A DNA stretch of 64,000 nucleotides from Pyropia yezoensis (Eukaryota; Rhodophyta; Bangiophyceae; Bangiales; Bangiaceae), in assembly GCA_009829735.1 (NCBI GenBank), contig CM020618.1, forward strand, positions 38,726,894-38,790,893, in the 5' to 3' direction. Positions 40,228-62,388 of the stretch are shown in pieces. Positions within the stretch are counted from its first letter, which is position 1. Every line of letters begins with the position of its first letter. Under the pieces are notes generated by a model. That model was given only the letters and a program-made list of their open reading frames with translations, searched no databases and was not told the origin of the DNA. The translations under genes were made by a program, and so were the position numbers.

Positions 40228-42171
40228 ATGGCGACCCCGGGAGTGGAGACGGACTCTCTAGATGAGCGTATGGAGGACACCACCTACGGTGCAGCACCCG
40301 CCGGGACTTCCGGCGGGGGCTCCGCGATCGCTCCGGGGGAGGGGACTCCCGCGTCACCCGGCTTTGGGTTGACGGCGGGGTCTCCCCCGGAGGCGGGACA
40401 AGTTGTCCCGCGTGAGGCCTTGGGGCGGTGGTTTTACCCCGCTTGGCCTCTCTATGAGGAGGGGTTGACTGTTCTTCGCTGTGGCCGACTTGGCGCAGCG
40501 ATGGGTCGGGTATGGGACCGCCTACGGGAGAAGTATCCCCGTAGGGTCGGGTTCCCTGCCGGCTTCAGGACGGACCAGTTTGCCTTCCTGGACGATGAGG
40601 AGGTTGAGGACGTTCAGCGTGCCAAGGCCATGGTGGACCGCGGGGGAACTATCCCGGGTCCCGGCGACTTGCCGACCTTTACTTGGGACGCGGTGGCAAC
40701 TCGCCCCCCGTACCTCCACGAGGCCGATCCGCACACTCATCACTTTGATGTGCGGATGGAGAAAGACTTCCGGCGAGGTCCCTACTTGGAGACCTCGGCT
40801 CAACTTGAGTTTCCTCAACAGTCTGCTGCCAGCAAGGAGCAGTACTATCCGAAGAAGCCCGAGTGGTGGCCTCAAGTTGAGGTCCCCTACGGGTTCCCAG
40901 CGTTGCTGCCACGGTTGTTTGACCACTTCGGATCCGTCATGTTGACGGCTGGCCCTGATCACCTGGTGTGGGCCATGTTGGCCACCCAGTGGCTCCTCGA
41001 GGTCATTTCGACCTGGGTGTCTTGTGTTCAGCGGCGGGGGATGCTCTGGCATCTCCCCCTCCGGCTCGTCCAAGGTTTGGAACAGCTCACCCCTCAGCTA
41101 GTTGCTGAGGGGTGCTCATCAGGACAACTCACTCTACTTGAGGAGATGCTCCGGATCCATAAGTTCATCGAGTGGGAGAGCATTGAGCACAAGTTGCGCC
41201 GCCCCACTCGTGGGCCCAAGGACGATGGCGCACTTCGCCAGTTCGTGTGGGTCGCTCGTGAACTTCACGACGGCCGTGTGGTCCTACGAGAGGGGTTGGG
41301 CATCGGGGACTACCCGTATGCCCAGGGGGTGGATCGCCACACTGCGCCACCCCCGGACAAGCCCATAGTTATGGCTGTGCCCTCATATGATGACCATATG
41401 ACTCAACCTACTGCGGGGGCCCCAAGTCGGGGTCGCAGTTATACCCGGGTACCGCCACCTCGGCGTGCCCCTCCGCTTCCTCCTGTTCCTTTCCAGCCTC
41501 ACGGGAACATCCCGATCAGCGTGGCCGTGGAGTCATCCACCCCGGTGTCCCCCAACTTGGGGGCCACCCTCCTGACGGTATACCCCAAGTTGGTGTTACC
41601 GCCCACGCCTCTAACCTCAGAGATGATGATCACCACGTTGGTGCGCACCATTTCCTGGTTGGCCGCGTCGACCGCAACCCTCCAAAGTTCCGAGACTCCT
41701 CAACTTGAGGAGCGCGTTCGTACTGCAGTGGCGACCGCGAGTTGCGAGTCGGTGGCGGAGTTTATGACAGCCGAGTTGGCTCTCATTGCGGCTATTATGC
41801 CCCAGCCAGCCCCACTTGGGCGTGGCAAACGTCGCGCGAGCCGGGCATACTCGCCTCCTCGCCGTCGCCGCCGACACTCGCGGCGCTCTCCCTCCGTGTC
41901 GGAAGACGAGTTGTCTTACTCCGTTTCGGAGTCCTCTACCCCGTCGGAGACGGAGTCTGTCCAGCGTCTGCGTCGCAAACTTGCGCGCAAGACCAGGCAG
42001 AAGAGTAGCCACGGTCGGCGCCACTTGCGCGACCGTGAAGGGCGCGACGGTTCCGACTTGGAGCCGCCGCCCCTTCCAACGAGTGGAGACCGTTATCGGC
42101 GTGGGTCTCGCCGCTCGGCTCCACGTGAGGGCGAGGGCCGTGGAGTGGGAGAGTCTAGCATGCGTGCCTAG
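40228..42171 (+). CDS. Antisense accessory ORF of element 1 (conserved family)
   Basis: 647 aa, opposite to gag-pol and convergent with pol, about 340 bp inside the 3' LTR. The ATG (GAGAGCCATGG) has good context; the frame is open upstream without ATG. Residues 1-60 are Gly/Ala/Pro-rich. Residues about 160-322 form the core: PPYL, a YGFPALLPRLFDHFGSVML segment, then RRGMLWHLPLRLVQGLEQL and ending HKFIEWESIEH. The same landmarks in the same order and spacing occur in the antisense ORF of element 2. A Pro-rich linker follows, then a second helical patch (about 455-520) and a basic, Arg/Ser-rich tail (PPRRRRRHSRRSPSVSEDE), which suggests nucleic-acid binding or nuclear entry. No Cys knuckle, protease or transmembrane helix is obvious. 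The function is unknown; env is unlikely. Confidence 0.75.
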   Translation: MATPGVETDSLDERMEDTTYGAAPAGTSGGGSAIAPGEGTPASPGFGLTAGSPPEAGQVVPREALGRWFYPAWPLYEEGLTVLRCGRLGAAMGRVWDRLREKYPRRVGFPAGFRTDQFAFLDDEEVEDVQRAKAMVDRGGTIPGPGDLPTFTWDAVATRPPYLHEADPHTHHFDVRMEKDFRRGPYLETSAQLEFPQQSAASKEQYYPKKPEWWPQVEVPYGFPALLPRLFDHFGSVMLTAGPDHLVWAMLATQWLLEVISTWVSCVQRRGMLWHLPLRLVQGLEQLTPQLVAEGCSSGQLTLLEEMLRIHKFIEWESIEHKLRRPTRGPKDDGALRQFVWVARELHDGRVVLREGLGIGDYPYAQGVDRHTAPPPDKPIVMAVPSYDDHMTQPTAGAPSRGRSYTRVPPPRRAPPLPPVPFQPHGNIPISVAVESSTPVSPNLGATLLTVYPKLVLPPTPLTSEMMITTLVRTISWLAASTATLQSSETPQLEERVRTAVATASCESVAEFMTAELALIAAIMPQPAPLGRGKRRASRAYSPPRRRRRHSRRSPSVSEDELSYSVSESSTPSETESVQRLRRKLARKTRQKSSHGRRHLRDREGRDGSDLEPPPLPTSGDRYRRGSRRSAPREGEGRGVGESSMRA

Positions 42172-42284
42172 TTGGCAGCTGCCTTTGTTGTGAGAGTGTG
42201 AGGGTTAGGGCTGTAGTTAAAAGCCACTCTGCGTACCACTTCGACTTGAAGCACTCTCTTGGCACTGTTGCTCGGCCTTCCCTC

Positions 42285-42399
42285 ACGTTGAGGGAGGGCT
42301 GTTAGGGTCTATCTCATTCCGGGCACAGTACGCCCGGACCTTCTCAGCGGGAAGGTCCTCCACATACTCCCACGTATCGTCCTTGGCTTTGTAGCCAAA
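42285..42399 (-). pseudogene. Out-of-reach C-terminal part of the element 1 chromodomain
   Basis: After the pol TGA the same frame continues with GYKAKDDTWEYVEDLP and ends at a second stop near 42266. This is the second half of the chromodomain (aromatic cage and helix), so the pol stop splits the domain. Confidence 0.8.
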
Positions 42400-45300
42400 T
42401 CAACGCACCCTCAACATGAGGCGGTTAGTGTCTTCATCCCATCCGTGGTCGATGAACTTATCGAACACGTACTCCTGCGGGCCCTGTTTGGCCGCAGGCA
42501 GTGAGGGGAGGCGCCACGCTTCCAAAGCACGCGCCCAAGCTGGGTCGCCTGCAGGCGGTGGTGCAACTTTGACCACGTCCTGTCCGTTCACTGTGCGGAC
42601 CCCAGCGTCACTTTCGATGGTGAAGCGCCGCCCATCAGTACGAAGGACCTGGTACGGCCCCTTCGTCTGGAATACCAGCTTACCCCCAGTTGGGGTGTGC
42701 GAGTGTACCAGCACCCAGTCACCCTGCTCGGGGACGTGCTTAGCATTGCGCACCTTTTTGTCAAAGGTACGCTTGTAGCGCTTTTGTGCTTTGTCCATCT
42801 CAGCCCTGACTTTAGGGATGAGGTTTTCAAGCCTAGCAGCGAACTCCGCCTTACTCTCAGTAGGAGTAGGCGTACTGCCACCATCCTCCCTAGTTGGGAG
42901 CAACCGCCGCACGGCAATAGGCCGCACACGACGGGGGGTCACAAAAGCGAGGGGTACTTCCCCGGTAGATGAGTGAACCTGCGAATTGTAGGCGGTAGTA
43001 AGAATAGAAATGTATTGGTCCCACGTCTTCACGTGCTCACTCACATAGTGGCGCAGCTGCCTAACAATAGTTTTGTTGAAGCGCTCCACCTGCCCAATAG
43101 TTTGTGGGTGGTAGGGGGTGGCATAGTTTGCCTTAACCCCCAACATATCCAGCACTCCCTGAAACAGTACAGACGCAAATTGCGGTCCATTGTCCGATAG
43201 TGTACTATCCGGGATGCCATACGCGGCAATCCAGTGATCAAGGAAGGCTGACACGACCGACATGGCCGTGATCTCTGCCAGTGGGATCGCTCGCGTAAGT
43301 TTCGTGAAGCGGTCACAGATGACCAGGAGGTACTGGTTGCCCTCCTCGGTCACTGGCAGTGGCCCAAGGATGTCCATCGCCAACGCGGCGAAGGGCTCCT
43401 TGGCCGGGAACAATAGCATAGCCGTACTAGGCCGCCGTTCCATCAGACGGTTCTGTGCACAACTTGTGCAGGCAGCCACCCGACTGTAGATGTCCACCAC
43501 CATGGACGGCCAGTAGTACCTGGTCCTCAGGGTCTGGTACAGTTTACTAGACCCCAGGTGTCCACCCGTGGGAGCGTTGTGCTCCCTCTCAAGGATACTG
43601 TCCTTGAGGGATGCGGGGACGACAAGTTGTTCAGCCCCTTGGAATACCCCCCTCCTCATGAGGGGGCCATCGTCTCCCAGAAAGAAACGCGTCTCCACCA
43701 CTGTATCCAGTGTATCCCTCTGCGACTTGCAGAAGGGATCCTCGGCCTGGGCCTTCAACACCTCGTCCAGGGACAGGGGCAAGTACTTCTTGTTCCCTGG
43801 CGCCTCGGGGTTCAACGCCTGACCCGAGCGCGTGACTACCCCCACGATGGGGATGTCCTCATCGACTGGGTTAGTGTCCAGCCCCTCGGTAGGTACCCGA
43901 GAGAGGCCGTCGGGAAGGGCATGTTGCCTGCCAGGTCGGTACTCAATGTCAAAGTTGAAGGGTGCCAGTCGCACCCTCCACCGATTGAGACGAGTGTTCG
44001 TACAGTCCGTCTTAAAGATGAACTGCAACGCGCGGTGGTCACAGCGGATGAGGAACTTCTCACCCTCTAGGTAGTGACGAAGTGACGTCACCGCCCACAC
44101 CACTGCGAGTCCTTCCAACTCGGTGACTCCGTAGTTCTTCTCGGCCGAGTTCAGCCCCTTACTGAAGTATCCCACCGGCAAGTACTCCTTGTCCGGCTGC
44201 TGCTGAAGCAACACACAACCAAGTTGGTCGTAGCTAGCGTCCACATCCAGGATGTAGTGGCCTCCCAACCTGGGAATAGCCAGGATAGGGGGCTTCAGCA
44301 GAAGGTCCCGAAGAGTCTCAAAGGATTCCTGCTCCACCCGACTTGGGGGAGGCAGGTTCTTCGGTAGCGTTGAGCTCACTAGCTCATTCAACGGCTTCGC
44401 CACCTTGGCGAAGCCCTTGGTGAAACGTCGGTACACGTTACACATCCCGAGGAAGCTCCTCATCTGGGTCTGGGTCCGGGGGTACTGAGCCTTACGAATG
44501 GCCCTCAAGTTCTTCTCGTTAACACTGAGACGCCCCGGACGGACAACATGTCCCAAGTACTCCACCTCTTGAGTGAAGAGGTGGCACTTACTCGCCTTCA
44601 GTGACACACCGGCGTCAGCAAGTAGCTTGAATACCTGGCCACGATGGCCAATGTGTTCCTCCGGACTTCGGGAGAACACAATGATATCGTCTAGGTACAC
44701 AAGACAGATCTGCCACCGTACTCCGGCCAGAATCATGTCCATAGCGCGCTGGAAAGTTGCCGGCGCGTTACACAGACCAAACGGTAGGCGCTTGCACTGG
44801 TAGGTACCACAGTGACAGGTAAAGGTAGTTTTATGCCTGTCCTCCGGGGCAATGGGAATTTGCCAGTACCCCGCGTTACAGTCCAGGGTAGAGAACACGT
44901 TTGCCTCCCCCAGAGAGTCCAGACAGTCGTCCATCCTAGGTAGGGGATAACTGTCCTTCACCGTGCTTTCGTTGAGCTTACGGTAGTCGATACAAAACCG
45001 GGGGGTCCCATCAACTTTGGGGACGATAACCACCGGACTCGCCCACTCGGCGTTGCTGGCCTCGATCACATCGAGGGCCTCCATGCGAGCAACTTGCTCC
45101 TTAACGAGGGCCCTTGAACGAGGTCCTCCCCTATACGGTTGTTGGCGTATAGGGGGTGCACCGGGCTTCAACTCGATCCGGTGTTGGGTGGCTCTCATGA
45201 GTCCCAATTGACCATCCCACAACCTGTGATATTGGTCCAAGAGGCGTTCAACTTGAACCCTCAACCTGGGGGGGACACCCTCCATGTTCACATGGGGCCG

Positions 45301-46266
45301 AGGAGAGGCGGCCGACTTGGCTTGATGCTTCTCCTTTCCGGACTTCGGGTCGCTACTTGCGCCCGCGTTGAGGGTGACCGCTACTACCGGTCCCTCGTGT
45401 TGGTCGATATAGCCGAACGTGGCTCCCGACTTGAAGTACTGGGGCGACGAGCTCAGGTTCATCACCTGTATCCTCCACGGGACTCCGGCTTTGGAGTCCA
45501 TCGTGCCAAGGGCAACATGCACTTGGTGCTTGCGAGCAAGACGGGGGTGAGGGTGCACCAACCCGTTCCCCGTATAATCAGTTACAACGTCAACGTGCGC
45601 CACCGAGTTGGGGGGCAACGTGACTTTACGGGCTAGACGCAGGGTAGCAGTAAACCCTTCCCTCACAGAGCAAACAGGCTTCGACTGTGAAACTGTCACA
45701 GGAGCCACAGACTTTCCCTTACCAAGGATGGGGATAGTCTCCCCATTCATCAACTTGACCCAGTACTCAGGGCCACAAATCAAAGGCACTTGTGTAACAA
45801 CATAAGGGGTACCCAGAAGCAGGGGTACCGATATATTCTCAACTACACCATAGGTCACGTCGACCTCATGGGTCCCCAACCTAGTTGGTAGGGTCTCGGC
45901 ACCAACGATGGGAAGTACCCCACCATTGATGTCAATCATATGGTCAGCTTTGGACCTCCAGCGTTGGAGCTTCACCTCCTTTGGTAATAGCGACTTGCGT
46001 ATCAAGGAGGCTCCTGACCCGGTATCAAGTACGATACGGGCACAACAGGCGCGGCCGGGGGCAAGTTGCACCCGTCCAGCCACCTGGAAGTTCTCACCCG
46101 TCAGCACCGCGATGACCCGACGTGGGTTTACGTTCTTGGGGAGTCCTACCCGAGGTGGGCGGACTCCCTTAGGTCGCCGCAGTATCCGGCACGGTTGGTT
46201 CGTCCTCCTGGCCCACTTGGCCGAGGCTGCCGTTGTGAGCTTCGGACGAGCAGCCCCAACGGTCAT
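42400..46266 (-). CDS. pol: Element 1 pol polyprotein (protease, RT, RNase H, integrase, partial chromodomain)
   Basis: 1288 aa. Protease active site LDTGSGASLIRK (about residue 81). RT with FCIDYRKLN (424) and YLDD (524). RNase H from DVDASYD (675) through RCDHRALQF. Integrase HHCC zinc domain (about 899-940; HNAPTGGHLG...CTSCAQNR), then catalytic residues in MDILGPL (965), SDNGPQF (1025) and VERFNK (1061). The chromodomain starts near 1270 (EYVFDKFIDHGWDED) but a TGA replaces the Trp codon normally found after VR. The ATG overlaps the gag stop (AATGACC), so pol is probably made by termination-reinitiation rather than a gag-pol frameshift. All enzymatic motifs are intact. Confidence 0.96.
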   Translation of the reverse strand: MTVGAARPKLTTAASAKWARRTNQPCRILRRPKGVRPPRVGLPKNVNPRRVIAVLTGENFQVAGRVQLAPGRACCARIVLDTGSGASLIRKSLLPKEVKLQRWRSKADHMIDINGGVLPIVGAETLPTRLGTHEVDVTYGVVENISVPLLLGTPYVVTQVPLICGPEYWVKLMNGETIPILGKGKSVAPVTVSQSKPVCSVREGFTATLRLARKVTLPPNSVAHVDVVTDYTGNGLVHPHPRLARKHQVHVALGTMDSKAGVPWRIQVMNLSSSPQYFKSGATFGYIDQHEGPVVAVTLNAGASSDPKSGKEKHQAKSAASPRPHVNMEGVPPRLRVQVERLLDQYHRLWDGQLGLMRATQHRIELKPGAPPIRQQPYRGGPRSRALVKEQVARMEALDVIEASNAEWASPVVIVPKVDGTPRFCIDYRKLNESTVKDSYPLPRMDDCLDSLGEANVFSTLDCNAGYWQIPIAPEDRHKTTFTCHCGTYQCKRLPFGLCNAPATFQRAMDMILAGVRWQICLVYLDDIIVFSRSPEEHIGHRGQVFKLLADAGVSLKASKCHLFTQEVEYLGHVVRPGRLSVNEKNLRAIRKAQYPRTQTQMRSFLGMCNVYRRFTKGFAKVAKPLNELVSSTLPKNLPPPSRVEQESFETLRDLLLKPPILAIPRLGGHYILDVDASYDQLGCVLLQQQPDKEYLPVGYFSKGLNSAEKNYGVTELEGLAVVWAVTSLRHYLEGEKFLIRCDHRALQFIFKTDCTNTRLNRWRVRLAPFNFDIEYRPGRQHALPDGLSRVPTEGLDTNPVDEDIPIVGVVTRSGQALNPEAPGNKKYLPLSLDEVLKAQAEDPFCKSQRDTLDTVVETRFFLGDDGPLMRRGVFQGAEQLVVPASLKDSILEREHNAPTGGHLGSSKLYQTLRTRYYWPSMVVDIYSRVAACTSCAQNRLMERRPSTAMLLFPAKEPFAALAMDILGPLPVTEEGNQYLLVICDRFTKLTRAIPLAEITAMSVVSAFLDHWIAAYGIPDSTLSDNGPQFASVLFQGVLDMLGVKANYATPYHPQTIGQVERFNKTIVRQLRHYVSEHVKTWDQYISILTTAYNSQVHSSTGEVPLAFVTPRRVRPIAVRRLLPTREDGGSTPTPTESKAEFAARLENLIPKVRAEMDKAQKRYKRTFDKKVRNAKHVPEQGDWVLVHSHTPTGGKLVFQTKGPYQVLRTDGRRFTIESDAGVRTVNGQDVVKVAPPPAGDPAWARALEAWRLPSLPAAKQGPQEYVFDKFIDHGWDEDTNRLMLRVR

Positions 46267-48209
46267 TCGTTTCCCGCCGACTTAGCGTCCGAATCTGAGG
46301 GCGGGGAGGAAGACGACGAGTCCGAAGACGACGTGTCTGCCTCCTCCGCCGAGGGTGTGGCGACCGCGACGACCGGTCGAGACCCACCCTCGCGGCGTGA
46401 ACGTACTTCGTTCGTAGCCGACTTCTTACTCGCATTCCTAACAAGTTGTTGGATGCGTTTACTCAACTTGGGGCAATCATATGCCCAGTGTCCATCGGAG
46501 TTGCAGTTCCAACACCGATGGTCTGTTCCGGGAGGGGTCTTCCCAACTGGGGTAGACGAAGGGATACCCTGGGAAGTTCCCACGGCAGCTACCACCCTCT
46601 CCTTGCGGATTCGGCGTGCCTCTCTCAACTCTCTGGCCTGGCGCGCCTCCTCCCGTTCCTTGGCCAACTCGGCCTGACGCTCCTGGCGTTGTTCCTCCCG
46701 CAACTTGCGGTAGGCCTCGCCTCTGCGATAGGCGAACCTAGCCAACTCGGCCAGGGTCGCCCGGGCAGTGTTATGCTCCCGGGTCTCCATCCGGACTGAC
46801 CAATGGAGTCCCTCCACAAACCGACTCTTCACCACAGCTTGTGGATGAAGAAACCCACAAATATTGTTGAGCTTACGGACTCGCTCCGCAAAGGACAACT
46901 CGTCCTCCGCCTCTTCCTGATGGGCTTGCGTAAACTCCTCGACTTGAGAAGCCAACGCTGCCTCATCAACCATGGCTCTCAACAACCAGTTGACGAGCTC
47001 CAAATAGGACGTCACCTCCCCAGCGCCTCCACTTGAGGAGCTGGGCATGACGGACATAAGTTCTGTCCGCAGGTCGCCCTTCGTAAACTCCTGTAGCATG
47101 TAAAAAGCCATGCCTTCACTTGTGGCATTGTCGTCACAGGCTTTTGTGAAACGACGTAGGAACTCAAAGACACGGAGGGGGGGGGTTCCATCCCACTCCG
47201 CTTTGTGCCCAAAAGAATGAAGTGCATTCTTCTTGGCACGGCCCATGGCTCGGGCCTGGTCAGGACCATACACCACCGACTTGTTGTGGAGGGCGTAGGT
47301 CTCACAGTCAAAGATCCTCTGGTAGACCGGGTTGGCTACCTGGATCTTTGGCGGCACCTCACGTTGAGGGAACAGCCGCTGTGGCACTGGGGTAAGTTCA
47401 CCCTCAGTGCCTGTATTCCGGCGCGGCGCGCTTGGTGTAGCCGCCGGCGTTTCCGAGGGGAACTCCCCCGTGAAGGGCGTGCGCCCCACCGAGAATGGTG
47501 CGGCTCCCACGTTGGGAGTCACAGGGGTCCCCCCCTGTTCGGGGCGACCCGGAATAGGCGTCAGGGGAGATTCCCCCTGCGCCTGCGGGCTCGAAAGCCC
47601 CAATCCTGTCTGGACATTAAGGCCATCTGGCAAACTCGCCACAATCTGATTCAGAATAGTATTCGTCATCGTGACCACCAGGTCCGGCAAAGTCTGCCGC
47701 AACACATTGGTCGCCTCCCGACGGACAGTTTCCGCGAGGAGTGGATTGACGACTCCAGTTGAGTCTCGGTCCGCCTCCGGGAGTCCACCTGAGGGGTAAC
47801 CACGTCCCTCAGGGGCCTCAACCGGGGGCATGGGCGCGAGCCCATCGCCGACCAACGGAGGTCCACCGTCCTCCGAAAGCCTAGTTCGCGACGGCTCCAA
47901 GCCAAAGTTGGCTCCAACCCGAGTGGGACCCGCGGGGACAGTCCTCACCTCTTGGGACGTTCCCGTTGAGTATACCACACGGTGGCCAGACTTCGGCCCA
48001 CCCACATCAGAAGTGTCACCCGAGTGAACTCCCGACTGAGTCGGGGTGGCCTGTTGCCCGCCCGTACTTCCAGTCCTGCTGGCTAGAGGGACCTCTAGTC
48101 CCTCTGCGACCCCAGGTAAACCCACCTGTGTCTCACCAGTATTCAAAGGCACTGAAGTACGTGCGTCACCCGTGTACTCCCCGGACGACGGGGGGTCCGA
48201 GCTAGCCAT
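46263..48209 (-). CDS. gag: Element 1 gag polyprotein
   Basis: 648 aa from MASSDPPSSG; an in-frame stretch continues upstream without ATG. The first half is Pro/Gly/Thr-rich. The capsid region (about residues 300-480) has the Ty3-type pattern with RFTKACDD and LELVNWLLRAMVDEAA. A single CCHC zinc knuckle, CWNCNSDGHWAYDC, is near residue 565. The C-terminus is acidic/Ser-rich and ends AGNE, the same tetrapeptide as in element 2 gag. The stop TGA shares bases with the pol ATG. Confidence 0.93.
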   Translation of the reverse strand: MASSDPPSSGEYTGDARTSVPLNTGETQVGLPGVAEGLEVPLASRTGSTGGQQATPTQSGVHSGDTSDVGGPKSGHRVVYSTGTSQEVRTVPAGPTRVGANFGLEPSRTRLSEDGGPPLVGDGLAPMPPVEAPEGRGYPSGGLPEADRDSTGVVNPLLAETVRREATNVLRQTLPDLVVTMTNTILNQIVASLPDGLNVQTGLGLSSPQAQGESPLTPIPGRPEQGGTPVTPNVGAAPFSVGRTPFTGEFPSETPAATPSAPRRNTGTEGELTPVPQRLFPQREVPPKIQVANPVYQRIFDCETYALHNKSVVYGPDQARAMGRAKKNALHSFGHKAEWDGTPPLRVFEFLRRFTKACDDNATSEGMAFYMLQEFTKGDLRTELMSVMPSSSSGGAGEVTSYLELVNWLLRAMVDEAALASQVEEFTQAHQEEAEDELSFAERVRKLNNICGFLHPQAVVKSRFVEGLHWSVRMETREHNTARATLAELARFAYRRGEAYRKLREEQRQERQAELAKEREEARQARELREARRIRKERVVAAVGTSQGIPSSTPVGKTPPGTDHRCWNCNSDGHWAYDCPKLSKRIQQLVRNASKKSATNEVRSRREGGSRPVVAVATPSAEEADTSSSDSSSSSPPSDSDAKSAGNE

Positions 48210-48307
48210 GTTGGCTGACGATCCGTATGACACGGTCCAAGACCACCGTTCCTCTGAGACAGAGGGCCCCCTACACCCGGGTGCACCCGGAGGTAAAGTT
48301 CATCTCT

Positions 48308-48326
48308 GTCCCCTGCTGCTCCACCA
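48308..48326 (-). other. Primer-binding site of element 1
   Basis: TGGTGGAGCAGCAGGGGAC lies two bases past the 5' LTR. The identical 19-mer follows the 5' LTR of element 2. It starts TGG as needed for a tRNA CCA end, but does not match the common initiator-Met type PBS. Confidence 0.8.
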
Positions 48327-48328
48327 AA

Positions 48329-48797
48329 TGTGGCAAAAACCACATGCACACACGGCACCCAAGTTGGGGCGGTGTGCAAGGGCTGCCTCCCGTGTCGGGG
48401 GAACCGGAAGAAGTGCAAGTCGCACACACTCTGTCCCTGTTGTGGGGCAAACCCCCCACGGACAAACAAGAGGATGGTGTGTGGTCCAACAGTTTCTTGG
48501 TCGGGACGGGGACGCAGGGCCAAGCCCCGCTGTCCCTCCCCTTATCCCCCCAGGGTCCACTCAGAATCTCGCCACTCAGAATCTCCCACCCCAGCACCTG
48601 CCCACCGGGCCACACGAAAATTCAAGACGATAAATGCAGAAAACCCTCAAATCCAAGGTGGATTTACTACTAAGCTAACTATCCCAAACTTAGGGAATGT
48701 GGACCCAAATGCAGGGGGAGGAACGGATCAGGCTAGTGGCCTGCCGCCCCTTGCATGGCACGTGTTGCCCCCCTACCTGGGGGTCAATACTGCCACA
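48329..48797 (-). repeat. 5' LTR of element 1
   Basis: 469 bp, TGTGGC/GCCACA ends, four transitions from the 3' LTR. Should hold the gag-pol promoter on the minus strand; no clear TATA box was found. Confidence 0.95.
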
Positions 48798-48802
48798 CGT
48801 CC
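48798..48802. repeat. Target site duplication CGTCC (right)
   Basis: Pairs with 39416-39420. Confidence 0.9.
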
Positions 48803-54060: not shown

Positions 54061-54079
54061 TGGTGGAGCAGCAGGGGAC
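54061..54079 (+). other. Primer-binding site of element 2
   Basis: TGGTGGAGCAGCAGGGGAC, identical to element 1, one base past the LTR. Confidence 0.85.
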
Positions 54080-54283
54080 GGGTTTCCGTCACCCTTGTGG
54101 TGACGCCGTCTTCGGCCCTGGCACACGGATAGGGATCTGGTCCTTTTCTTGTACTCGTGGTGTTGCGACCTGATCGATTGTGTTGAGTTTTTACCTTTGA
54201 CTGTGATCTACTGTACTCTCCCCAATCTACCCCCTCGCTCTCTTGTTCGTGGTGATTGATACGTCGGTTGACTGATTGTGACC

Positions 54284-56467
54284 ATGTCTACCCAAGAGAC
54301 GGGGAACGTTCAAGATGACGGATCGGCGTCGACGCCGACCCCGGAGGTGACTACGGGAACCGGGATCGGGAACCCGATCGATAACATTGAGACGCCAATG
54401 CTTTCCGGTGCCGGATCGACGTTTGGCACGGCTCGGACGGCAGGAGGCGGGGGCCCGCCTCAACTGTCGTCGACCGACCTCACTCCGCCGCCTCCTTCAC
54501 CAGGGGATTCCCTGATGGCATCATTGGCCCGCATCGAGGCCCGGTTTTCCGGGCTCGACGCCCGTCAAGATCGGACGGAGGACGCAATGGCAGTGTTGAT
54601 GTCAACACGGCACACGACGGGACCCCGTCGTGTTCCTCCCACACCGGTACGGTTCGAACCGGCCGGACTACTTTCGGAGTCCACCAGGGTCAACCCCGGT
54701 GTTGCTACTCCTGGACAACCCCCGGACACAATGGGGTATGGGTCCGACTCGTCGGCAGAGTTGGAACGGAGTCACACGGAGCGATACGCTCGGAGCACCC
54801 GAAGCGGACTCCGCGGACACGACCCGGCGGATACGTACGCCGGGGGAGAGTCGGTTATTGGAGGAGGGGGTACCCTCTCGCAGTACCCCCACGACGAAGG
54901 AGGCCCGGCAACTCGGGTTCCCGAGGTGCCGACGCCTGAAGTACCATCTTCAGTGGTGGAAGCTATGACCGCGCAGGTAACTGCGAGCCTACTGAAGCGG
55001 ATGGAGTCCGATGAGTTCGCTCATCAACTGGCTAAGCGACTGGATATCCAGGACGCTGACACGGAGATCGTCAACGAGGTCTTCCGGTCGGTTCTTACTC
55101 CGGAACGTTATCGTTTGGAGGACCGCTCTACCACCGTATCGGAATCGATGCGTAATACGTCGCATCGGGCGATCCGCTCTATGCAGACCCTTATGAAGGG
55201 AGTCCCTATGTTCGGGGGGCCGAACGGACGCCCGTTGGCAGTCATCGGCTTCTTGACCAGCTTCAAGGCAGCCGCAGACAAGGCGCTCGTTAACGAGGGG
55301 CTGGCCCTGGAGATCCTCCCGTTCTTTGTTGATGAACGGGTGCGAGGCATTCTTCGCCAGGCATCCCCGATGCCGGGAATGAGGGTCGCGGCCACCCCCA
55401 TGGATTACCGTGGGATATTGAAGGAGCTGCTGAGCAGCTACCTCAGTGAGGACAAGTGCGAGGACCACTATCGGGCCCTTCGCACTGCCACCGCCCAGTC
55501 CTGGGAGGATGAGGAGATGTTTGGACGCCGGATCCAAGAGCTCGACTACGAGCTGGGGAAGCTCCTCGGAGAAGGGGAGCTACGGGCCATCCTGTTCGCA
55601 GGAGTACCCAACTACGTGCGGATATCCGCACGGGGCGCCAACACGGCACGGACGAACTTCAGTCGACTGATGCATATGTGCAAGTCCCTAGGGGACGCCT
55701 ACCGGGTTCTACACCCGGAGTGTGCCTTGGCCCCGAAGCCCAAGGGTGAGGGAGGCAAGCCCAGTCTTACCCCGGTACCGAGGCAAGAGAAGGTGGAACG
55801 TAAGGCCGCACCAGTACTGGTGGCGACCGAACATACCCCTATTGGTGAGGATGACCCTCTAGTCGACCAACAGGGCCACCTGTTGCTACCGGCGACGCCG
55901 GTGATTGATGAACATGGTACGGTAGCGTACATCGCCCCGGCTGGAACCCAGTTCCAGGTCAACGAAGGAACGGGACGGCGCGTCCCGTATGTGCGGACTA
56001 CGGGGTACTCCCCGGTGACGGGTAACCCTCACCAACCCTTGCCAACATGGGCGGTGCACACGGAGGCACCCCCGCAGATTGCGGGCCGACCCAACCGGTT
56101 GGGGGAGTCCATGTTCCGGTTGACCCAAGGACCCAAGGCCTACCAGGGAGCAGGCACTCGGGCGCCCGAGGGAGGCAACCGTAGCTACGGGGCTACCCCG
56201 ATGCGGCCTCAAGGGGGGACCGGCACGTCCGGATGTATGTTGTGTGGGGATCCCCAGCACTGGGTGTCTTCCTGCCCACTCATTCCCGAGGAGTCTCGGC
56301 GGGCAGCGGCGCAACGCAAGGCATCCACCGGGGGGTATCCCCCCCGAGCTCCCGGACCCGCACCGGGTAGGCAGCCAGCTCCAGGTGGAGTACTGGCCGT
56401 CGAGGGGGCACCTCCTCAGCCGGATGTCCCGGCGGACAGCACCCTACCAAGGGCGGGAAACGAGTAA
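54284..56467 (+). CDS. gag: Element 2 gag polyprotein
   Basis: 727 aa from MSTQETGNV (ACCATGT). The N-terminal third is Ser/Thr/Pro-rich. The capsid-like region spans about residues 220-480 (GRPLAVIGFLTSFKAAADKA, RALRTATAQSWEDEEMFGRR). One CCHC knuckle, CMLCGDPQHWVSSC, is near residue 650. The C-terminus ends AGNE followed by TAA. Pol starts 8 nt later in another frame, so the stop-start arrangement parallels element 1. A 32-nt piece of this gene reappears after the second gap. Confidence 0.94.
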   Translation: MSTQETGNVQDDGSASTPTPEVTTGTGIGNPIDNIETPMLSGAGSTFGTARTAGGGGPPQLSSTDLTPPPPSPGDSLMASLARIEARFSGLDARQDRTEDAMAVLMSTRHTTGPRRVPPTPVRFEPAGLLSESTRVNPGVATPGQPPDTMGYGSDSSAELERSHTERYARSTRSGLRGHDPADTYAGGESVIGGGGTLSQYPHDEGGPATRVPEVPTPEVPSSVVEAMTAQVTASLLKRMESDEFAHQLAKRLDIQDADTEIVNEVFRSVLTPERYRLEDRSTTVSESMRNTSHRAIRSMQTLMKGVPMFGGPNGRPLAVIGFLTSFKAAADKALVNEGLALEILPFFVDERVRGILRQASPMPGMRVAATPMDYRGILKELLSSYLSEDKCEDHYRALRTATAQSWEDEEMFGRRIQELDYELGKLLGEGELRAILFAGVPNYVRISARGANTARTNFSRLMHMCKSLGDAYRVLHPECALAPKPKGEGGKPSLTPVPRQEKVERKAAPVLVATEHTPIGEDDPLVDQQGHLLLPATPVIDEHGTVAYIAPAGTQFQVNEGTGRRVPYVRTTGYSPVTGNPHQPLPTWAVHTEAPPQIAGRPNRLGESMFRLTQGPKAYQGAGTRAPEGGNRSYGATPMRPQGGTGTSGCMLCGDPQHWVSSCPLIPEESRRAAAQRKASTGGYPPRAPGPAPGRQPAPGGVLAVEGAPPQPDVPADSTLPRAGNE

Positions 56468-56475
56468 GAGGAAGG

Positions 56476-59400
56476 ATGACCGGGGGGCGCTGGGGTCACC
56501 CAAGCAAGCCACCCCGGAGTACCGCGGGGAAAGCCCCACGGAGAGCGCGGTTGAGCCGACGCCGCATCAACCCCCGGGTACACCTTCCGGCCCCGACGAC
56601 ACGGCGTCAGGGGATTGATGACCAACCTCCAAGGTTGGGAGGAGAGGACGGGAAGCCCCGTCACGTTGAACCAGACAAGGGCCCTGTTCAGGATGCCCGA
56701 GTTACACCGGATATCGGTGTAGGACATGTGTTGTTTACCTTGGAGAACTTCAAGGTATCAGCCACCCTGGGGGTTGACCCCCAGTCGACACGATCGTACT
56801 ACCCTGTACTGGACACAGGGGCTGGACCCAACCTTATCCGGAAGGATACCCTCCCGGACAAGTGGCTTCCACGAGTCAGAGTGACTCGGGGACCCACCAT
56901 CAAGGACGCGAATGGTCGACTCATTCGTACGACCGCAGCGATGTCGCTGCAGGTTACCATCGGGGATCTCACCACGGAAGTTGACTTCCTGGTATGTGAA
57001 ACGCTATCGGTGCCCTGCATACTGGGGTGCACCTTCATCAACGTTCACGTTGATGCAATCCGGCCAGGCCGGAGGACCGTCGAGCTTCAAGAAGCCGACG
57101 GGACGAAGCGAGGACACACGGCTATCGTCAGGGACCTGACGCTACAAGGAAGCCACGTTAACGTGGCTGAGGTGTACGCAAGCGTCGAGCCGAAGACACT
57201 TCGGTTGGCCAAGCGGACTCGCTTTGAGCCATTGTCAGAGACAGTCCTCCCGGTTAACTGCGACCTCGCAGGCATCTGCAGAGTCCAGTCCAACCTACGG
57301 ACGTACAAGCGCCATGGGTTGACCATGGCCAACGGTCTCATAGACCTCCCAGCAGAAGGGTCGTCCCTCCTAGTGATGGCGAACTACCGTCGTAAGGCAG
57401 TCACCCTCCCGAAGGGAACTATCCTCGGGATTGCCGAACTCTACGAAGGAGATATCCTTACCCCTGATAAGGAAGGTCAAGTGGAACCACTTGAAGTACT
57501 GGCGGTCGCCGAGACCACCGAGCGACAGCAAACCGATGACGGGAAGCCTAACCCATCGGCGGCTCCGGCGGACCTGCCGCCAAAGGACCAAGAGGCCTTG
57601 AAGGCACTGGCCGAGGCTGACCTCGACCACCTTCCCCCTTCGGTAGCCGAAGGGGTACGACGGATGCTAAGAAAGCATGACGTTATGTGGACAGGCGGGG
57701 CCTTGGGGACCATTGGGGCAACCCAACATCGTATAGACCTGGTACCAGGCGCACGACCCGCCCGCTCACAACCGCACCGAGCGGGACCTATGCAACGAGA
57801 GATCGTTGATGGAGAAGTGAAGAGGATGAGTGAAGCTAAGGTGATCCGACCTTCGATGTCGGAATGGGGTGCCCCAGTCGTTATTGTGCCGAAGAAGGAT
57901 CAAACCCCTCGGTTTTGCATCGATTATCGACGCCTCAACTTGGTTACCAAGAAGGACTCATACCCTTTACCAAGGATGGATGAATGCATCGACTCCCTGG
58001 GGGAGGCTACGGTGTTTACCACCATCGACTGCAATGCCGGATACTGGCAGATCCCGGTGGCGGACGAGGATATCCCCAAGACGGCATTCGTCTGTCACAG
58101 TGGAGTGTACGAGTTCCTAAGGATGCCCTTCGGATTGTCCAACGCCCCCGCTACATTCCAGCGGGCTATCGACATCATACTGTCTGGGGTGAAGTGGCGT
58201 AACTGCCTAGTGTACCTCGATGACGTCATCGTCTTCTCGCGTAACATGGATGACCATGTACAACATGTTGACGAGGTACTCACCCTCTTGAGGAACGCCG
58301 GGGTAACCCTGCGTCTGAAGAAGTGCGCCTTCTTCCAACAGACGGTCGAATATCTGGGCCACCAGATAACCCCTGGTAAACTAGGGGTACTCGAAGCCAA
58401 TACCCGGGCACTCCGGGATGCCCGGTTCCCTAACACCCAGACGCAGCTCAAGAGCTTCCTGGGAATGTGCAATGTATACCGACGGTTCGTCAAGGACTTC
58501 GCTCGGATAGCTAAACCGTTAACGGTTCTTACGAGCAGTACCTTACCCAAGGTACTCCAACCCCCTTCGCCTAGCGAAGAGGAGGCATTCGAGTCGCTGA
58601 AGCGAGCCCTACTAGCCCCACCCGTCCTTGCGTTACCGCATAGACGGGGTACCTTCGTCATCGATGTCGATGCATGTGATACACAAGTGGGATGCACCCT
58701 GTTACAGGGAGAGACGTTGATCGGCACCGATAACGTTATCCCGGACCTACGTCCGGTAGGGTACTTCAGCCGGACACTCAACCCGGCTGAGCGGAACTAT
58801 AGTGCCACCGAGCGTGAATGCCTCGGAGTTATATGGGCAGTGCAACTGCTCCGTCCATACCTGGAGGGCTCCAGGTTCATCGTGAGGTCCGACCACGAAC
58901 CCCTACGATGGCTCCTCAACCTTGGTGACAAGGATTCCGATAGCCATGGGAGGCTAGCCCGATGGAGGCTGAAGATGGCCGAGCACGACTACCGCACGGT
59001 GTATAAGGCTGGGTCAACCCACCACCTCGGAGACGCGTTGTCTCGACTCGACACCCCGAGCGGGGATACCCGCCCGGTGGACGAGGACATCCCGGTAGTA
59101 CCGGTGTGCATGGTGGGTAATGCTACCCAGGGTATGGTTGACCATACCATGGCACACCTTGCGTGCCCATTGACCCTCGCGGACTTCCGCGAGGCACAGG
59201 CCAACGACGATGACTGTAGACGTCATCGTGCTAACCTCCTGGCCGGTACGGCCGGCATCTTCTCCGAGAACGAAGACGGACTCATATACCGGCGGGCACC
59301 CGCCGATGGACGACATCAAGTCGTGGTTCCCGTGTCCTTACGGCAAGCCGTCATGGAACGAGAACATGAGAACCCTACAGCCGGACACCCGGGGGGTTCA

Positions 59401-60642
59401 CGTATGTTCGCAGCAATGCGAAGGTTCTTCTACTGGCCAGCAATGGCCGTCGACGTGGTCGACCACGTAAGGGGATGCCACCCCTGTGCACGTAACCGCA
59501 TGAGTCTACATAGGCAGGCGTCTGCCATGAAGCTATTCTCACCTGATGGGCCCAACGAGCAAGTCGCTATCGACATACTCGGGCCACTTCCGATAACGGA
59601 AGAAGGGAACAGGTACATCCTGGTCATGTCTGACCGCTTCACTAAGCTGTCAAGAGCGGCAGCCATCCCGAATGATACGGCATACACGATCATGAACGCA
59701 GTGGTTGACCACTGGATCAGTGCATACGGAGTCATGAAGCAACTCCTCTCCGATAACGGAGCAAACCTTACGTCGGCATTCTGCACGAAGGTCCTGGGCA
59801 TGTTCGGTATCGAACCACGTCGGGCATCCGACTACCACCCGCAGTCCAACGGGCAGGTGGAGCGGTTCAACCGCACCATCGTAAAGATGCTACAGTGCTA
59901 CGTGGCCGAGCACACGAACACTTGGGACAGGCTTCTGTCCGTAATCACCCTGACATACAATGCCAGGCCACATCGGAGCACAAACATTGCTCCGCTGGAG
60001 TGGGTCATGCCACTAGGCGTCGGTAACCTGACGCTGCCACCCGGCAGGTGCACTCGGTATGATACACCGAAGGGCCGACCCGCCGAGCGCATCCACCTAG
60101 CTTGGTTGGCCAAGCTATCGTGGATGATTCCTAAGCTCAAGGGTGCCCTTGACAGAACACAACTTCGGTATAAGAAGAACTTCGACGCCCGACTACGGGT
60201 GCGCAACGCAACCCTGGTAACAGGTGACTGGGTCTATATCAGACACCAGAAGTTCCGAGGGAACAAGCTTATGCAACCGGTCAAGGGACCGTACCAGATC
60301 CTCCACAGAGATAACCACTCTGTTATCTTACACTCCGATACGGAGATTCAACGCATCAGCATGAATGACGTCACACCTGCTCCGATGCCGGAACAGCCTC
60401 AGCCGGTACCGGCTGGGTTGCTACATGAAGCTCTTACAACCCACCGGTCAGATGACCCGGTGGGACCGGATGGGATTCCATACCAAGTAGAGAGCGTGGT
60501 CGGACACACCGACCCGGACCTACCAGGACCCTGGTACGTCAAGGTTATGTGGGTCGGATACGACTCACCCACCTGGGAACAGGCGGCAAATATACCCCGC
60601 CAACTACTCATGCCTTACATGAGGCGACGACGCCTACTGTAA
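56476..60642 (+). CDS. pol: Element 2 pol polyprotein (protease, RT, RNase H, integrase, chromodomain)
   Basis: 1388 aa, uninterrupted. Protease LDTGAGPNLIRKD (about residue 113). RT with FCIDYRRLN (480), NAPATFQRAIDIIL and YLDD (579). RNase H from DVDACD (730). Integrase HHCC (about 960-1005; HENPTAGHPGG...CHPCARNR) and catalytic residues in IDILGPL (1033), SDNGAN (1093) and VERFN (1128). The chromodomain near 1335-1378 is complete (YQVESVVGHTD, VKVMWVGYDSPTWEQ). It starts with its own ATG 8 nt after the gag stop. All visible motifs suggest an active-type enzyme. The chromodomain would steer integration toward modified chromatin. Confidence 0.96.
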   Translation: MTGGRWGHPSKPPRSTAGKAPRRARLSRRRINPRVHLPAPTTRRQGIDDQPPRLGGEDGKPRHVEPDKGPVQDARVTPDIGVGHVLFTLENFKVSATLGVDPQSTRSYYPVLDTGAGPNLIRKDTLPDKWLPRVRVTRGPTIKDANGRLIRTTAAMSLQVTIGDLTTEVDFLVCETLSVPCILGCTFINVHVDAIRPGRRTVELQEADGTKRGHTAIVRDLTLQGSHVNVAEVYASVEPKTLRLAKRTRFEPLSETVLPVNCDLAGICRVQSNLRTYKRHGLTMANGLIDLPAEGSSLLVMANYRRKAVTLPKGTILGIAELYEGDILTPDKEGQVEPLEVLAVAETTERQQTDDGKPNPSAAPADLPPKDQEALKALAEADLDHLPPSVAEGVRRMLRKHDVMWTGGALGTIGATQHRIDLVPGARPARSQPHRAGPMQREIVDGEVKRMSEAKVIRPSMSEWGAPVVIVPKKDQTPRFCIDYRRLNLVTKKDSYPLPRMDECIDSLGEATVFTTIDCNAGYWQIPVADEDIPKTAFVCHSGVYEFLRMPFGLSNAPATFQRAIDIILSGVKWRNCLVYLDDVIVFSRNMDDHVQHVDEVLTLLRNAGVTLRLKKCAFFQQTVEYLGHQITPGKLGVLEANTRALRDARFPNTQTQLKSFLGMCNVYRRFVKDFARIAKPLTVLTSSTLPKVLQPPSPSEEEAFESLKRALLAPPVLALPHRRGTFVIDVDACDTQVGCTLLQGETLIGTDNVIPDLRPVGYFSRTLNPAERNYSATERECLGVIWAVQLLRPYLEGSRFIVRSDHEPLRWLLNLGDKDSDSHGRLARWRLKMAEHDYRTVYKAGSTHHLGDALSRLDTPSGDTRPVDEDIPVVPVCMVGNATQGMVDHTMAHLACPLTLADFREAQANDDDCRRHRANLLAGTAGIFSENEDGLIYRRAPADGRHQVVVPVSLRQAVMEREHENPTAGHPGGSRMFAAMRRFFYWPAMAVDVVDHVRGCHPCARNRMSLHRQASAMKLFSPDGPNEQVAIDILGPLPITEEGNRYILVMSDRFTKLSRAAAIPNDTAYTIMNAVVDHWISAYGVMKQLLSDNGANLTSAFCTKVLGMFGIEPRRASDYHPQSNGQVERFNRTIVKMLQCYVAEHTNTWDRLLSVITLTYNARPHRSTNIAPLEWVMPLGVGNLTLPPGRCTRYDTPKGRPAERIHLAWLAKLSWMIPKLKGALDRTQLRYKKNFDARLRVRNATLVTGDWVYIRHQKFRGNKLMQPVKGPYQILHRDNHSVILHSDTEIQRISMNDVTPAPMPEQPQPVPAGLLHEALTTHRSDDPVGPDGIPYQVESVVGHTDPDLPGPWYVKVMWVGYDSPTWEQAANIPRQLLMPYMRRRRLL

Positions 60643-60721
60643 CAACCCAACCGACACCGACTTCGGCTGTTGGGGGGTGAGGCTTATACCTACTAAGTAG
60701 GGTGTGACATGGTTAAAGCAG

Positions 60722-60809
60722 ACTTAGGTTTCTAAGTCAAATCAGACTTAGGTTTCTAAGTCGAACCAAGCTTAGGTAACTAAGTAGAGCTAAGCTTAGG
60801 TAACTAAGT
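60722..60809. repeat. 24-bp tandem array of four hairpins
   Basis: Four units at 24-bp spacing: ACTTAG-GTTT-CTAAGT (60722 and 60746), then GCTTAG-GTAA-CTAAGT (60770 and 60794). Each unit is a 5-6-bp stem with a 4-nt loop. It lies between the convergent pol and antisense ORF. The loop changes GTTT to GTAA between the two pairs. Confidence 0.9.
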
Positions 60810-61122
60810 AAAAACCTGAACCTTAATAAGGTAACTTAAAGGTAAAGGCTAACTCCGATAATATCGAAGTAACTAGGAGGCTTACACGGGAGGATGACCT
60901 CCCAAAGCCAAGACACAAAGTGAGGGAGGATAACCTCCCCAAGCATGAACCAACCGGAAGAAGTTGGACGGGAGGCAAGGCACCACTGAGCCAGAAGGGG
61001 TACTCCCCAGGGCAGCAAACAGAGGCAAGCAATGCCCCCAGCGGGGGATGAGTTTATACTCACTACTACCCGGCTACCATAAGGGTTGCCGGGGCCCTCT
61101 CCCGCACAAACAATAGCACTCC

Positions 61123-62388
61123 TCAGTGGGTAGACCCACTGCCCGAGGGAGGCCACTCACGCGTAAGCGCGTAGACCTCCGTGCTCCACCGGTCGGCAAC
61201 GTCACGACGGTCGACCACCCGAGTTACCTCGGTGCATAGCTGGACGAGGGTGCTGCGGCCAGCCTCCACGTCCTCCAGAGCTTTCTGGAGGCGGTCCAGC
61301 ACGCCACCGAAGCAACGCGCTGACCCAACCAGCGCAGCACCTGGGGGGATATCCCCCCAGCTAACAGAGAGACCCCCACGCATTGCGCGGGTAACAAGGG
61401 CGTCAACGCCTTCATACCAGAGACGGGGACCTCCGTCATGTAGGACAGGGGCGGGAGGTGACACTGGCGCAGCCAGAGGAGCCACAGGAGCCGACACGGC
61501 TACCACCGGAGCCGGTGGCACCTGATACGAGGCCCGGTAGGACCCTACCGAAGGGGCTCCACCGTAACCACGGCGGTACTCCGCCCGACGACGGGACACC
61601 TCACGCTCCCCACCCACAGAGCCCCACTCTCGGGGACGACGGCCTACCGCCGCCGGCATCGGGTTACCGAACCACGGAGCAAGGACCTGAAGAGGGTCAT
61701 GGATAACCATGGGAATACCCAGGTCAGCAACAGCCTCGGTGGATGCCCACCCATGGCAACTGGGCTCACCCGGCTGAGTACGCCGGACACGCAACGAGTG
61801 ACGAGGCAAGGGGGAAGCCCCAGCCTGCGGGTCCCGGTACGGGGGAAGGTCCAACACCCCAGCCCAGTTCACGGCATCGTGAACAGCCAGCAGGGCTTCG
61901 AACTCCCGGGCCAACCCGGTCTTGGCAGCTATCAGATCCACGCCCAACTGCGCGATGTGCCGACGGACACCCGTCGGAAGATGAAACAGACGACCCTGCC
62001 GGCGGACGGACAGCAAGAAGGATGAAGCCTGCCCGAGGGTAACCTCAAGGGTGAAGGTACCCTGCAACGGGTGGACCGGTCGCGAGGCCAACACACTCCC
62101 GAAGTAGCGAAGACAGGAGCCGGTGTCAAACCGGAAAGCAGGGGCGGGTTCCCACCCCTCCTGCCATAGCGGCGGGCGCACGGGAGTGTATACCGGAGCA
62201 CGACCGTTGCCGGTCTGCAACGCACACGTTATATCCGTGCGGAACGCATCCGCCATGACACCATGGTTACGTCGCCAACTCGACGCCGACTTCAACCCCG
62301 CCATGGGCGGGTAGGGAGCCGTCAACGACAGATACGGGGGTACCCCCGGGTAGTAGTCAAAGTCGGGATACCGACCGGTACGGCTCAC
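61123..62388 (-). CDS. Antisense accessory ORF of element 2, conserved core part
   Basis: 421 codons, convergent with pol. The first codon shown is GTG and no ATG precedes the conserved core, so translation probably enters from the upstream antisense ORF. The core (about residues 17-175) has PPYL, CLRYFGSVLA, RRQGRLFHLPTGVRRHIAQL and HDAVNWAGVL, collinear with the element 1 antisense ORF (PPYL to FGSV about 70 residues, FGSV to W-x-x-[VI] about 80 in both). The rest is Pro/Arg/Ala-rich with a helical C-terminal patch (LDRLQKALEDVEAG). No known domain. Confidence 0.7.
   Translation of the reverse strand: MSRTGRYPDFDYYPGVPPYLSLTAPYPPMAGLKSASSWRRNHGVMADAFRTDITCALQTGNGRAPVYTPVRPPLWQEGWEPAPAFRFDTGSCLRYFGSVLASRPVHPLQGTFTLEVTLGQASSFLLSVRRQGRLFHLPTGVRRHIAQLGVDLIAAKTGLAREFEALLAVHDAVNWAGVLDLPPYRDPQAGASPLPRHSLRVRRTQPGEPSCHGWASTEAVADLGIPMVIHDPLQVLAPWFGNPMPAAVGRRPREWGSVGGEREVSRRRAEYRRGYGGAPSVGSYRASYQVPPAPVVAVSAPVAPLAAPVSPPAPVLHDGGPRLWYEGVDALVTRAMRGGLSVSWGDIPPGAALVGSARCFGGVLDRLQKALEDVEAGRSTLVQLCTEVTRVVDRRDVADRWSTEVYALTREWPPSGSGSTH

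What the first reader, a model, noticed from the sequence alone, without database searches (positions are those of the whole stretch)
40228..62388. Conserved antisense accessory protein family in two different chromoviruses
Seen: both Ty3/gypsy elements carry, 3' of pol and on the opposite strand, a long ORF (40228-42171 plus; 62388-61123 minus). The elements are otherwise diverged in LTRs, gag and pol, yet these proteins share landmarks in the same order and spacing: PPYL, then F/Y-F-G-S-V, then R-R-x-G-x-L-x-H-L-P, then H-x-x-x-x-W. Known: antisense ORFs exist in some plant Tat/Ogre and Grande elements, but I know of none in chromoviruses of this type. Inference: an undescribed accessory protein (particle, nuclear import or host-defence role) translated from an antisense LTR-driven transcript.
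Basis: partly seen in the sequence, partly recalled or inferred. Interest (0 to 1): 0.88.

Follow-up and report, generated by a model that had tools for sequence, protein, structure and literature searches.

The report
Antisense accessory gene of algal retrotransposons
Several families of jumping genes (LTR retrotransposons) in the red seaweed that makes nori carry an extra gene written backwards behind their replication genes; it is conserved and kept by selection, it resembles no described protein found here, and what it does is still a guess.

Summary
The window matches the Pyropia yezoensis genome. Both Ty3/gypsy elements carry a long ORF behind pol on the opposite strand, and the two proteins are homologous (BLASTP E 1e-8, profile E 8e-6). 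The second ORF is only the C-terminal half of a gene: this copy is frameshifted and runs into a 500-N assembly gap; 16 of the 20 copies fetched first hold the uninterrupted gene, about 815 aa from its ATG. Two further families sampled have homologous antisense ORFs; of 82 hits in those families 20 have a listed reverse transcriptase within 7 kb, and all 20 lie on the opposite strand. Relatives occur in Pyropia vietnamensis and in unnamed public assemblies. Among copies dN/dS is 0.14 (family 1) and 0.35 (family 2); in family 1 the codon-phased substitution pattern starts at the predicted ATG, so selection acts on the antisense protein. No credible Pfam or PDB match, no TRP28 or chromodomain; structure prediction failed. 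Antisense genes at this place are known (Grande, RIRE2, Retand, Boty, REM1), so this is a new protein family of a known kind. The nuclear-regulator role and the LTR-driven transcript are inference.

The parts
40228..42171 (+). antisense accessory ORF of element 1 (647 aa); core about 40405-41427, basic run RRRRRHSRR at residue 545
   Evidence: codon-phased substitution pattern starts at this ATG
39421..39889 (-). 3' LTR of element 1 (469 bp, TGTGGC...GCCACA)
48329..48797 (-). 5' LTR of element 1
39416..39420 (.). 5-bp target-site duplication CGTCC, one side (the other at 48798-48802)
   Evidence: read from sequence
39890..40227 (+). leader between 3' LTR and the antisense ATG; polypurine tract of the element (other strand) at 39890-39906; candidate place of antisense promoter or 5' UTR (inference)
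   Evidence: no codon-phased pattern in the open stretch 39997-40227
48308..48326 (-). primer-binding site of element 1, same sequence as in element 2
   Evidence: read from sequence
42400..46266 (-). pol of element 1 (RT, RNase H, integrase)
46263..48233 (-). gag of element 1 (zinc knuckle)
61123..62388 (-).
62385..63455 (-). N-terminal part of the same gene in another frame (this copy is frameshifted), ending near the assembly gap
63469..63968 (.). assembly gap of 500 N; the rest of the element including its 3' LTR is outside the window (L021)
53697..54059 (+). 5' LTR of element 2 (363 bp, TGTAGC...GCTACA)
54061..54079 (+). primer-binding site of element 2
   Evidence: read from sequence
54278..56467 (+). 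gag of element 2 (no Pfam hit)
56476..60642 (+). pol of element 2 (protease, RT, RNase H, integrase, weak chromodomain-like end)

Best explanation
A lineage of Ty3/gypsy LTR retrotransposons in Pyropia carries an accessory gene between pol and the 3' LTR, on the strand opposite to gag-pol. Shown: it is a protein gene (conserved between families, codon-constrained among copies, found with the element). Inferred: it is translated from an antisense mRNA that starts in the 3' LTR or in the short leader beside it, convergent with the sense transcript, and makes a protein with a poorly conserved N-terminus, a conserved core and a tail that is rich in Arg and Ser in some families. Inferred, by analogy with Grande gene23 and HTLV-1 HBZ: a nuclear accessory factor that acts on the element's own RNA or DNA (transcription, RNA export or the nuclear stage of integration).
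For: Homology: window ORFs 1 and 2 E 1e-8, profile E 7.7e-6; ORF 1 vs family 3 E 4e-5, vs family 4 E 2e-8; family 3 vs 4 E 2e-18 over 351 aa; search with 383 frames as background. Orientation: of 82 family 3/4 hits entered, 20 have an RT hit within 7 kb; 20 of 20 lie on the opposite strand, 19 of 20 downstream of the nearest RT, the exception being a tandem copy with another RT 5 kb upstream on the right side. Selection: mean dN over mean dS 0.144 among 26 family-1 copies and 0.349 among 16 family-2 copies; 0 of 5000 context-matched placements had as few non-synonymous changes, in either family; no new stop. Start codon, family 1: variable sites by codon position 6/10/7 of 77 each before the ATG, 11/2/41 of 341 each in the core; pol 9/3/27 of 129, 129, 130. 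Family 2: core 8/7/22 of 330 each, C-terminus 6/3/17 of 215 each. No stop inside in 148 of 150 scored family-1 core hits and 97 of 99 scored family-2 hits. Other species: 16 relatives of the family-4 core, two named Pyropia vietnamensis hypothetical proteins.
Against: No transcript data. No domain or fold: no credible Pfam hit, no PDB sequence match below E 3.3, AlphaFold model pLDDT 36 and pTM 0.28. RS/SR dipeptides are 21 and 13 in families 3 and 4 but 7 and 5 in families 1 and 2, with no control for composition, and family 2 has no basic run, so 'basic nuclear protein' is not general. Weak links: phmmer none of six pairings of families 1-3; family 2 vs family 3 no BLASTP hit; family 4 profile vs family 2 E 0.46; in the 383-frame search family 3 as query meets ORF 1 only at E 0.07 and families 2 and 4 meet at E 0.06-0.08. 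The N-terminal 270 aa of family 2 show little codon phasing (17/12/19 of 270 each). The scored hits are the best of 2481 and 3177 first-look candidates, so intactness is biased upward. Orientation of the relatives is unknown.
Confidence: 0.5

Rival explanations
1. The antisense protein is a particle or pre-integration-complex component (structural, or nuclear import) rather than a regulator; the antisense strand only gives it its own promoter and dose.
For: Codon constraint like that of pol in family 1; found with the element in the sampled families.
Against: No similarity to the two gags (profile comparison E 0.24). Structural proteins of LTR elements are normally made from the sense genomic RNA (established knowledge).
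Confidence: 0.22
2. It counters host silencing, for example by binding double-stranded or small RNA that convergent transcription of the element would produce.
For: Inference: convergent transcripts that overlap make dsRNA, and an element that keeps this arrangement may need a counter-measure. Many RS/SR dipeptides in families 3 and 4.
Against: No RNA-binding domain recognised; no small-RNA data; no overlap of transcripts shown.
Confidence: 0.15
3. The antisense transcript matters as RNA (a brake on the element), and the ORF is a by-product.
For: Antisense RNAs that may regulate LTR elements are described (PMC7264820; PMC12786077, passages).
Against: Codon-level constraint that starts at the ATG, no new stops, protein similarity between families.
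Confidence: 0.05
4. Chance ORF in GC-rich DNA, or mirror of a sense-strand gene.
For: The window has many long frames; a 372-aa sense frame overlaps the family-2 ORF; the complementary frame with aligned third positions also has a low pN/pS (0.267 and 0.423).
Against: In the other five frames there are 12-25 stops (family 1) and 7-26 stops (family 2), and pN/pS is lowest in the antisense ORF frame, 0.171 and 0.325; dN/dS and homology as above.
Confidence: 0.02
5. A captured host gene still shared with the host genome.
For: Transduction is known in retroelements (PMC7264820). One P. vietnamensis model (P0004, 984 aa) has some 360 further residues that align with nothing in A5.
Against: No Pfam or PDB match; relatives found are unnamed or hypothetical. 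No dedicated search for a single-copy host gene was made.
Confidence: 0.06

Closest known systems
Grande gene23, RIRE2, Retand antisense ORFs (plant Ty3/gypsy; aORF-3R)
   Same: antisense ORF between pol and 3' LTR, present in most copies; Grande's is transcribed from its own promoter and its product is nuclear (PMC7264820, parts 1 and 2 of 3 read, i.e. all text before the references and part of these)
   Different: Retand type carries TRP28 (PF04195; PMC11963269, passages and discussion), which has no match in this genome at E<=10; Grande and RIRE2 proteins were not at hand for comparison
REM1 of Chlamydomonas reinhardtii
   Same: algal Ty3/gypsy element called a chromovirus, with a coding module in reverse frame (PMC2774666, passages only)
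   Different: that module is the GPY/F and chromodomain end of integrase; here the integrase is in the sense pol and the antisense proteins show no chromodomain. The original paper (PMC1291216) is not held; [quoted passage not shown]
Boty / BcGypsy1 brtn (Botrytis)
   Same: additional antisense gene in a fungal Ty3/gypsy element (reference title and passage in PMC8365987; PMC7264820)
   Different: sequence not at hand for comparison
HTLV-1 HBZ
   Same: antisense gene driven from the 3' LTR of an integrated retroelement; nuclear regulator (PMC10186651, passages)
   Different: bZIP protein; no bZIP match here; exogenous retrovirus

Membership tests
Ty3/gypsy LTR retrotransposon | LTRs with TG...CA ends, PBS, PPT, short target-site duplication | tested here: met
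   element 1 complete with 5-bp duplication; element 2: 5' LTR and PBS in the window, 3' LTR and PPT seen in L021; no duplication checked for element 2
Ty3/gypsy LTR retrotransposon | pol order RT-RNase H-integrase | tested here: met
Chromovirus | chromodomain at integrase C-terminus | tested here: inconclusive
   element 2 E 0.06, element 1 none, L060 E 5e-4 (below cut-off), L063 E 5e-6 (above cut-off); another family (L061) has a canonical one, E 1e-15
Chromovirus | RT within the chromovirus clade | not tested
   no reference RT set at hand
LTR elements with antisense ORF 3' of pol (aORF-3R) | ORF between pol and 3' LTR, antisense | tested here: met
LTR elements with antisense ORF 3' of pol (aORF-3R) | conserved in many copies with coding constraint | tested here: met
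   (best-scoring copies only)
LTR elements with antisense ORF 3' of pol (aORF-3R) | antisense transcript | not testable with these tools
   no RNA data
Retand-type TRP28 protein | TRP28 domain PF04195 | tested here: not met
   no hit among 5 and 19 proteins; no hit in the genome at E<=10
REM1-type antisense module | chromodomain in the antisense protein | tested here: not met
HBZ-type antisense regulator | bZIP domain | tested here: not met
   no bZIP in Pfam scans
HBZ-type antisense regulator | promoter in 3' LTR reading antisense | not testable with these tools
   no RNA data

The most novel reading that the evidence does not exclude
An ancient antisense gene class defines a whole lineage of red-algal Ty3/gypsy elements, older than the split of at least four families whose antisense proteins are down to 23-28% identity, and perhaps present in other organisms behind the unnamed database records. 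Its protein has a new fold and works as a nuclear regulator that the element expresses while the sense genes are silent: an HBZ-like latency switch in a seaweed retrotransposon.
Probability: 0.2. Interest if true: 0.8.

Novelty: new variant of a known kind. Interest (0 to 1): 0.56.

Why it matters
Antisense accessory genes have been described in plant, fungal, green-algal and retroviral elements, mostly without a known function outside the retroviruses. A selected, multi-family example in red algae, in at least 99 and 150 near-identical scored copies of two families, gives a good system to ask what such genes do: the selection data show that the protein, not just the RNA, is kept. It also suggests that some multi-copy 'hypothetical proteins' in Pyropia annotations are transposon genes.

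Tried and rejected
Chance ORF and sense-strand mirror: rejected by frame statistics, dN/dS and the 383-frame search. Upstream extension of ORF 1 to 39997: rejected, no codon phasing there. TRP28, chromodomain or other Pfam, PDB relatives, gag similarity: none credible. Database searches with ORF 1 and with alignment A1 gave only one 95%-identical protein each; relatives came only with the family-4 core; each search scored 8000 candidates. IMG/VR and GTDB contigs, searched with two peptide patterns from six family-4-like relatives: no relatives. Families with pol frames 1186 and 1255 were sampled once each (L061, L062): none of their frames of 100 aa or more hit an antisense protein at E<1, but L061 is cut short by a neighbouring element. 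AlphaFold on 19 sequences gave an unusable model, so no fold search was made; a second job was never accepted (queue full). The idea that element 2 is truncated at 63468 was dropped when this proved to be an assembly gap.
Full report
What the window is. The genome that holds the window has three large contigs of 43.6, 34.3 and 29.4 Mb (lengths; total 107.5 Mb). Passages of PMC7423979 give the same three scaffold sizes for Pyropia yezoensis, with 48% repeats, mostly LTR retrotransposons. The species name rests on this match.

The two elements. Element 1 (39421-48797, minus strand) is a complete insertion: LTRs of 469 bp, 5-bp duplication CGTCC on both sides, PBS, gag, pol, PPT. Element 2 (from 53697, plus strand) has a 363-bp 5' LTR, gag and pol; in the window it ends at an assembly gap of 500 N at 63469-63968. 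L021, which begins just after the window, matches window 55576-63468 at 99.8% over 7.9 kb, so one element may have been assembled twice across the gap. The two elements share the PBS and similar LTR termini; pol is 41.7% identical over 1243 aa and gag 26%.

The antisense ORFs. Both lie behind pol on the opposite strand. ORF 1 is 647 aa. Of the 20 copies fetched first, the open frame is 909 codons in ten, 905 in one, 854 in three, runs off the locus at 920 in two, and is shorter in four, the window copy among them; 16 of 20 hold the whole gene without a stop from its ATG. The protein is 815 aa. Of the 99 scored copies, 50 have exactly 909 codons open and 83 at least 815 (rows, counted). In seven longer stretches (L023-L029) an antisense 909-codon frame lies behind pol sequence in 7 of 7, though pol itself is broken in some.

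More than chance. BLASTP E 1e-8, profile comparison E 7.7e-6. Against 383 stop-to-stop frames from the window and loci L060-L063, antisense frames included, ORF 1 at E<1 hits only itself and the antisense proteins of family 2 (6e-7), family 4 (5e-6) and family 3 (0.004). From the other side the links are weaker: family 3 as query meets ORF 1 at 0.07, families 2 and 4 meet at 0.06-0.08, and two or three unrelated frames appear at 0.65-0.84. phmmer with default filters reported none of the six pairings of families 1-3.

More families. Two further families were sampled from the RT hit list: L060 (866-codon frame open to the locus edge) and L063 (608 aa), both antisense and 3' of pol. L060 vs L063 E 2e-18; ORF 1 vs L063 E 2e-8; ORF 1 vs L060 E 4e-5, family 2 vs L060 no hit. 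A genome search with a family-4 relative gave 72 matches of 34-60% identity; the L060 core gave 64, among them six of its own family and a distant set at 28-30% whose surroundings were not looked at. Of the 82 hits entered (72 plus 10 of the 64), 20 have an RT hit within 7 kb: 20 of 20 on the opposite strand, 19 of 20 downstream of the nearest RT; for the exception, a tandem copy, another listed RT lies 5 kb upstream on the expected side. One search lists only the best 150 of 3927 RT candidates, so the other 62 hits say nothing. Two other pol families sampled once each (L061, L062) showed no such ORF; L061 is cut short and is weak evidence.

Other species. The L063 core found 16 proteins in 5.8 billion (8000 candidates scored): two Pyropia vietnamensis hypothetical proteins, one standing for a cluster of 74 member sequences, and 14 without a name from the sources lgn, jgi and ena. 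Their position relative to pol is unknown. ORF 1 and alignment A1 found only one, 95% identical. IMG/VR and GTDB contigs: none, with two peptide patterns each.

Selection. Family 1: 26 of 30 loci used, the window copy included (L032, L035, L038, L044 dropped as out of frame or short). Family 2: 16 of 28 extractions used; L001, L004, L010, L011, L014 dropped for stops, frame or length, and seven are the same genomic copies as others. Mean dN over mean dS is 0.144 and 0.349. With changes placed at random in matching trinucleotide contexts, none of 5000 trials had as few non-synonymous changes, in either family; CpG transitions are 15 of 150 and 16 of 104 changes. In family 1 (25 copies plus the window) variable sites by codon position are 6/10/7 of 77 each in the open stretch before the ATG, 3/2/11 of 59 each just after it, 11/2/41 of 341 each in the core, 10/20/44 of 247 each in the tail; pol gives 9/3/27 of 129, 129, 130. 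Family 2 (17 copies): 9/11/6 of 94 each before the ATG, 17/12/19 of 270 each in the N-terminal part, 8/7/22 of 330 each in the core, 6/3/17 of 215 each at the C-terminus. So core and C-terminus are constrained; the N-terminal part of family 2 hardly is. Copies share history, so these counts are not independent events. Families 3 and 4 were not tested for selection.

What the protein is. No credible Pfam match (best E 0.026 in one of 19 members), no PDB sequence match below E 3.3, no gag similarity, no TRP28 in the genome. The AlphaFold model of P0005 with 19 sequences is unusable (pLDDT 36). Profile comparison links family 4 to ORF 1 (E 2.5e-5; with A2, which holds both window proteins, 9.7e-5) but not to family 2 alone (E 0.46). 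RS/SR dipeptides number 7, 5, 21 and 13 in families 1-4, with basic runs in families 1 and 3 and no control for composition.

Mechanism. Shown: a protein gene, antisense, found with the element lineage, kept by selection. Inferred: antisense mRNA from the 3' LTR or the adjacent leader (338 bp in element 1), convergent with the sense transcript; a nuclear accessory role by analogy with Grande gene23 (PMC7264820) and HBZ (PMC10186651, passages). The analogy sets the prior; nothing here tests it. I hold the protein-gene part at about 0.95 and the nuclear-regulator part at about one half.

Known or new. PMC7264820 (parts 1 and 2 of 3; part 3 is the rest of the references) lists antisense ORFs 3' of pol in Grande, RIRE2, Retand, PvRetro13 and Boty. 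PMC11963269 (passages and the discussion) reports TRP28-coding antisense ORFs in 97% of Retand clusters. PMC2774666 (passages) describes the reversed integrase module of REM1. In ten paper searches I saw no listed title or abstract that reports this gene in red algae; the library lacks most subscription papers and I did not read most listed papers. Passages of PMC12477816 and PMC12786077 held no such report. Hence: new protein family, known kind of gene.

Noticed in passing
L060:2-1741 (+), residues 431-500: C-terminal pol extension behind the chromodomain matches DNA N-6-adenine-methyltransferase (Dam, PF05869, E 4e-7); L063 pol has a related extension (28% over 254 aa).
   Followed up: partly
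window 63469-63968 and 795-1294: Two assembly gaps of exactly 500 N. Sequence on both sides repeats (55576-63468 vs L021, 99.8%; 134-433 vs 7736-8035 and 735-794 vs 8339-8398, 100%), so elements may be assembled twice across gaps.
   Followed up: partly
L023 1-9900: Variant of element 2 in which the LTR is followed directly by sequence matching window 55705 on, so about 1.6 kb with some two thirds of gag is missing and a 1712-codon frame is open; candidate non-autonomous form.
   Followed up: no
L022 1-4696: Tandem array of about 550-bp units, 98% alike, next to an element 2 copy.
   Followed up: no
window 51136-52935 (+): Plavaka transposase match (PF18759, E 7e-7) upstream of element 2.
   Followed up: no
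window 20138-24100: Ordinary host genes: NMD3 and a UbiA prenyltransferase.
   Followed up: no
L002 2545-3660 (+) and copies: A 372-aa sense-strand frame overlaps the antisense ORF of family 2; stop and pN/pS figures favour the antisense frame.
   Followed up: partly
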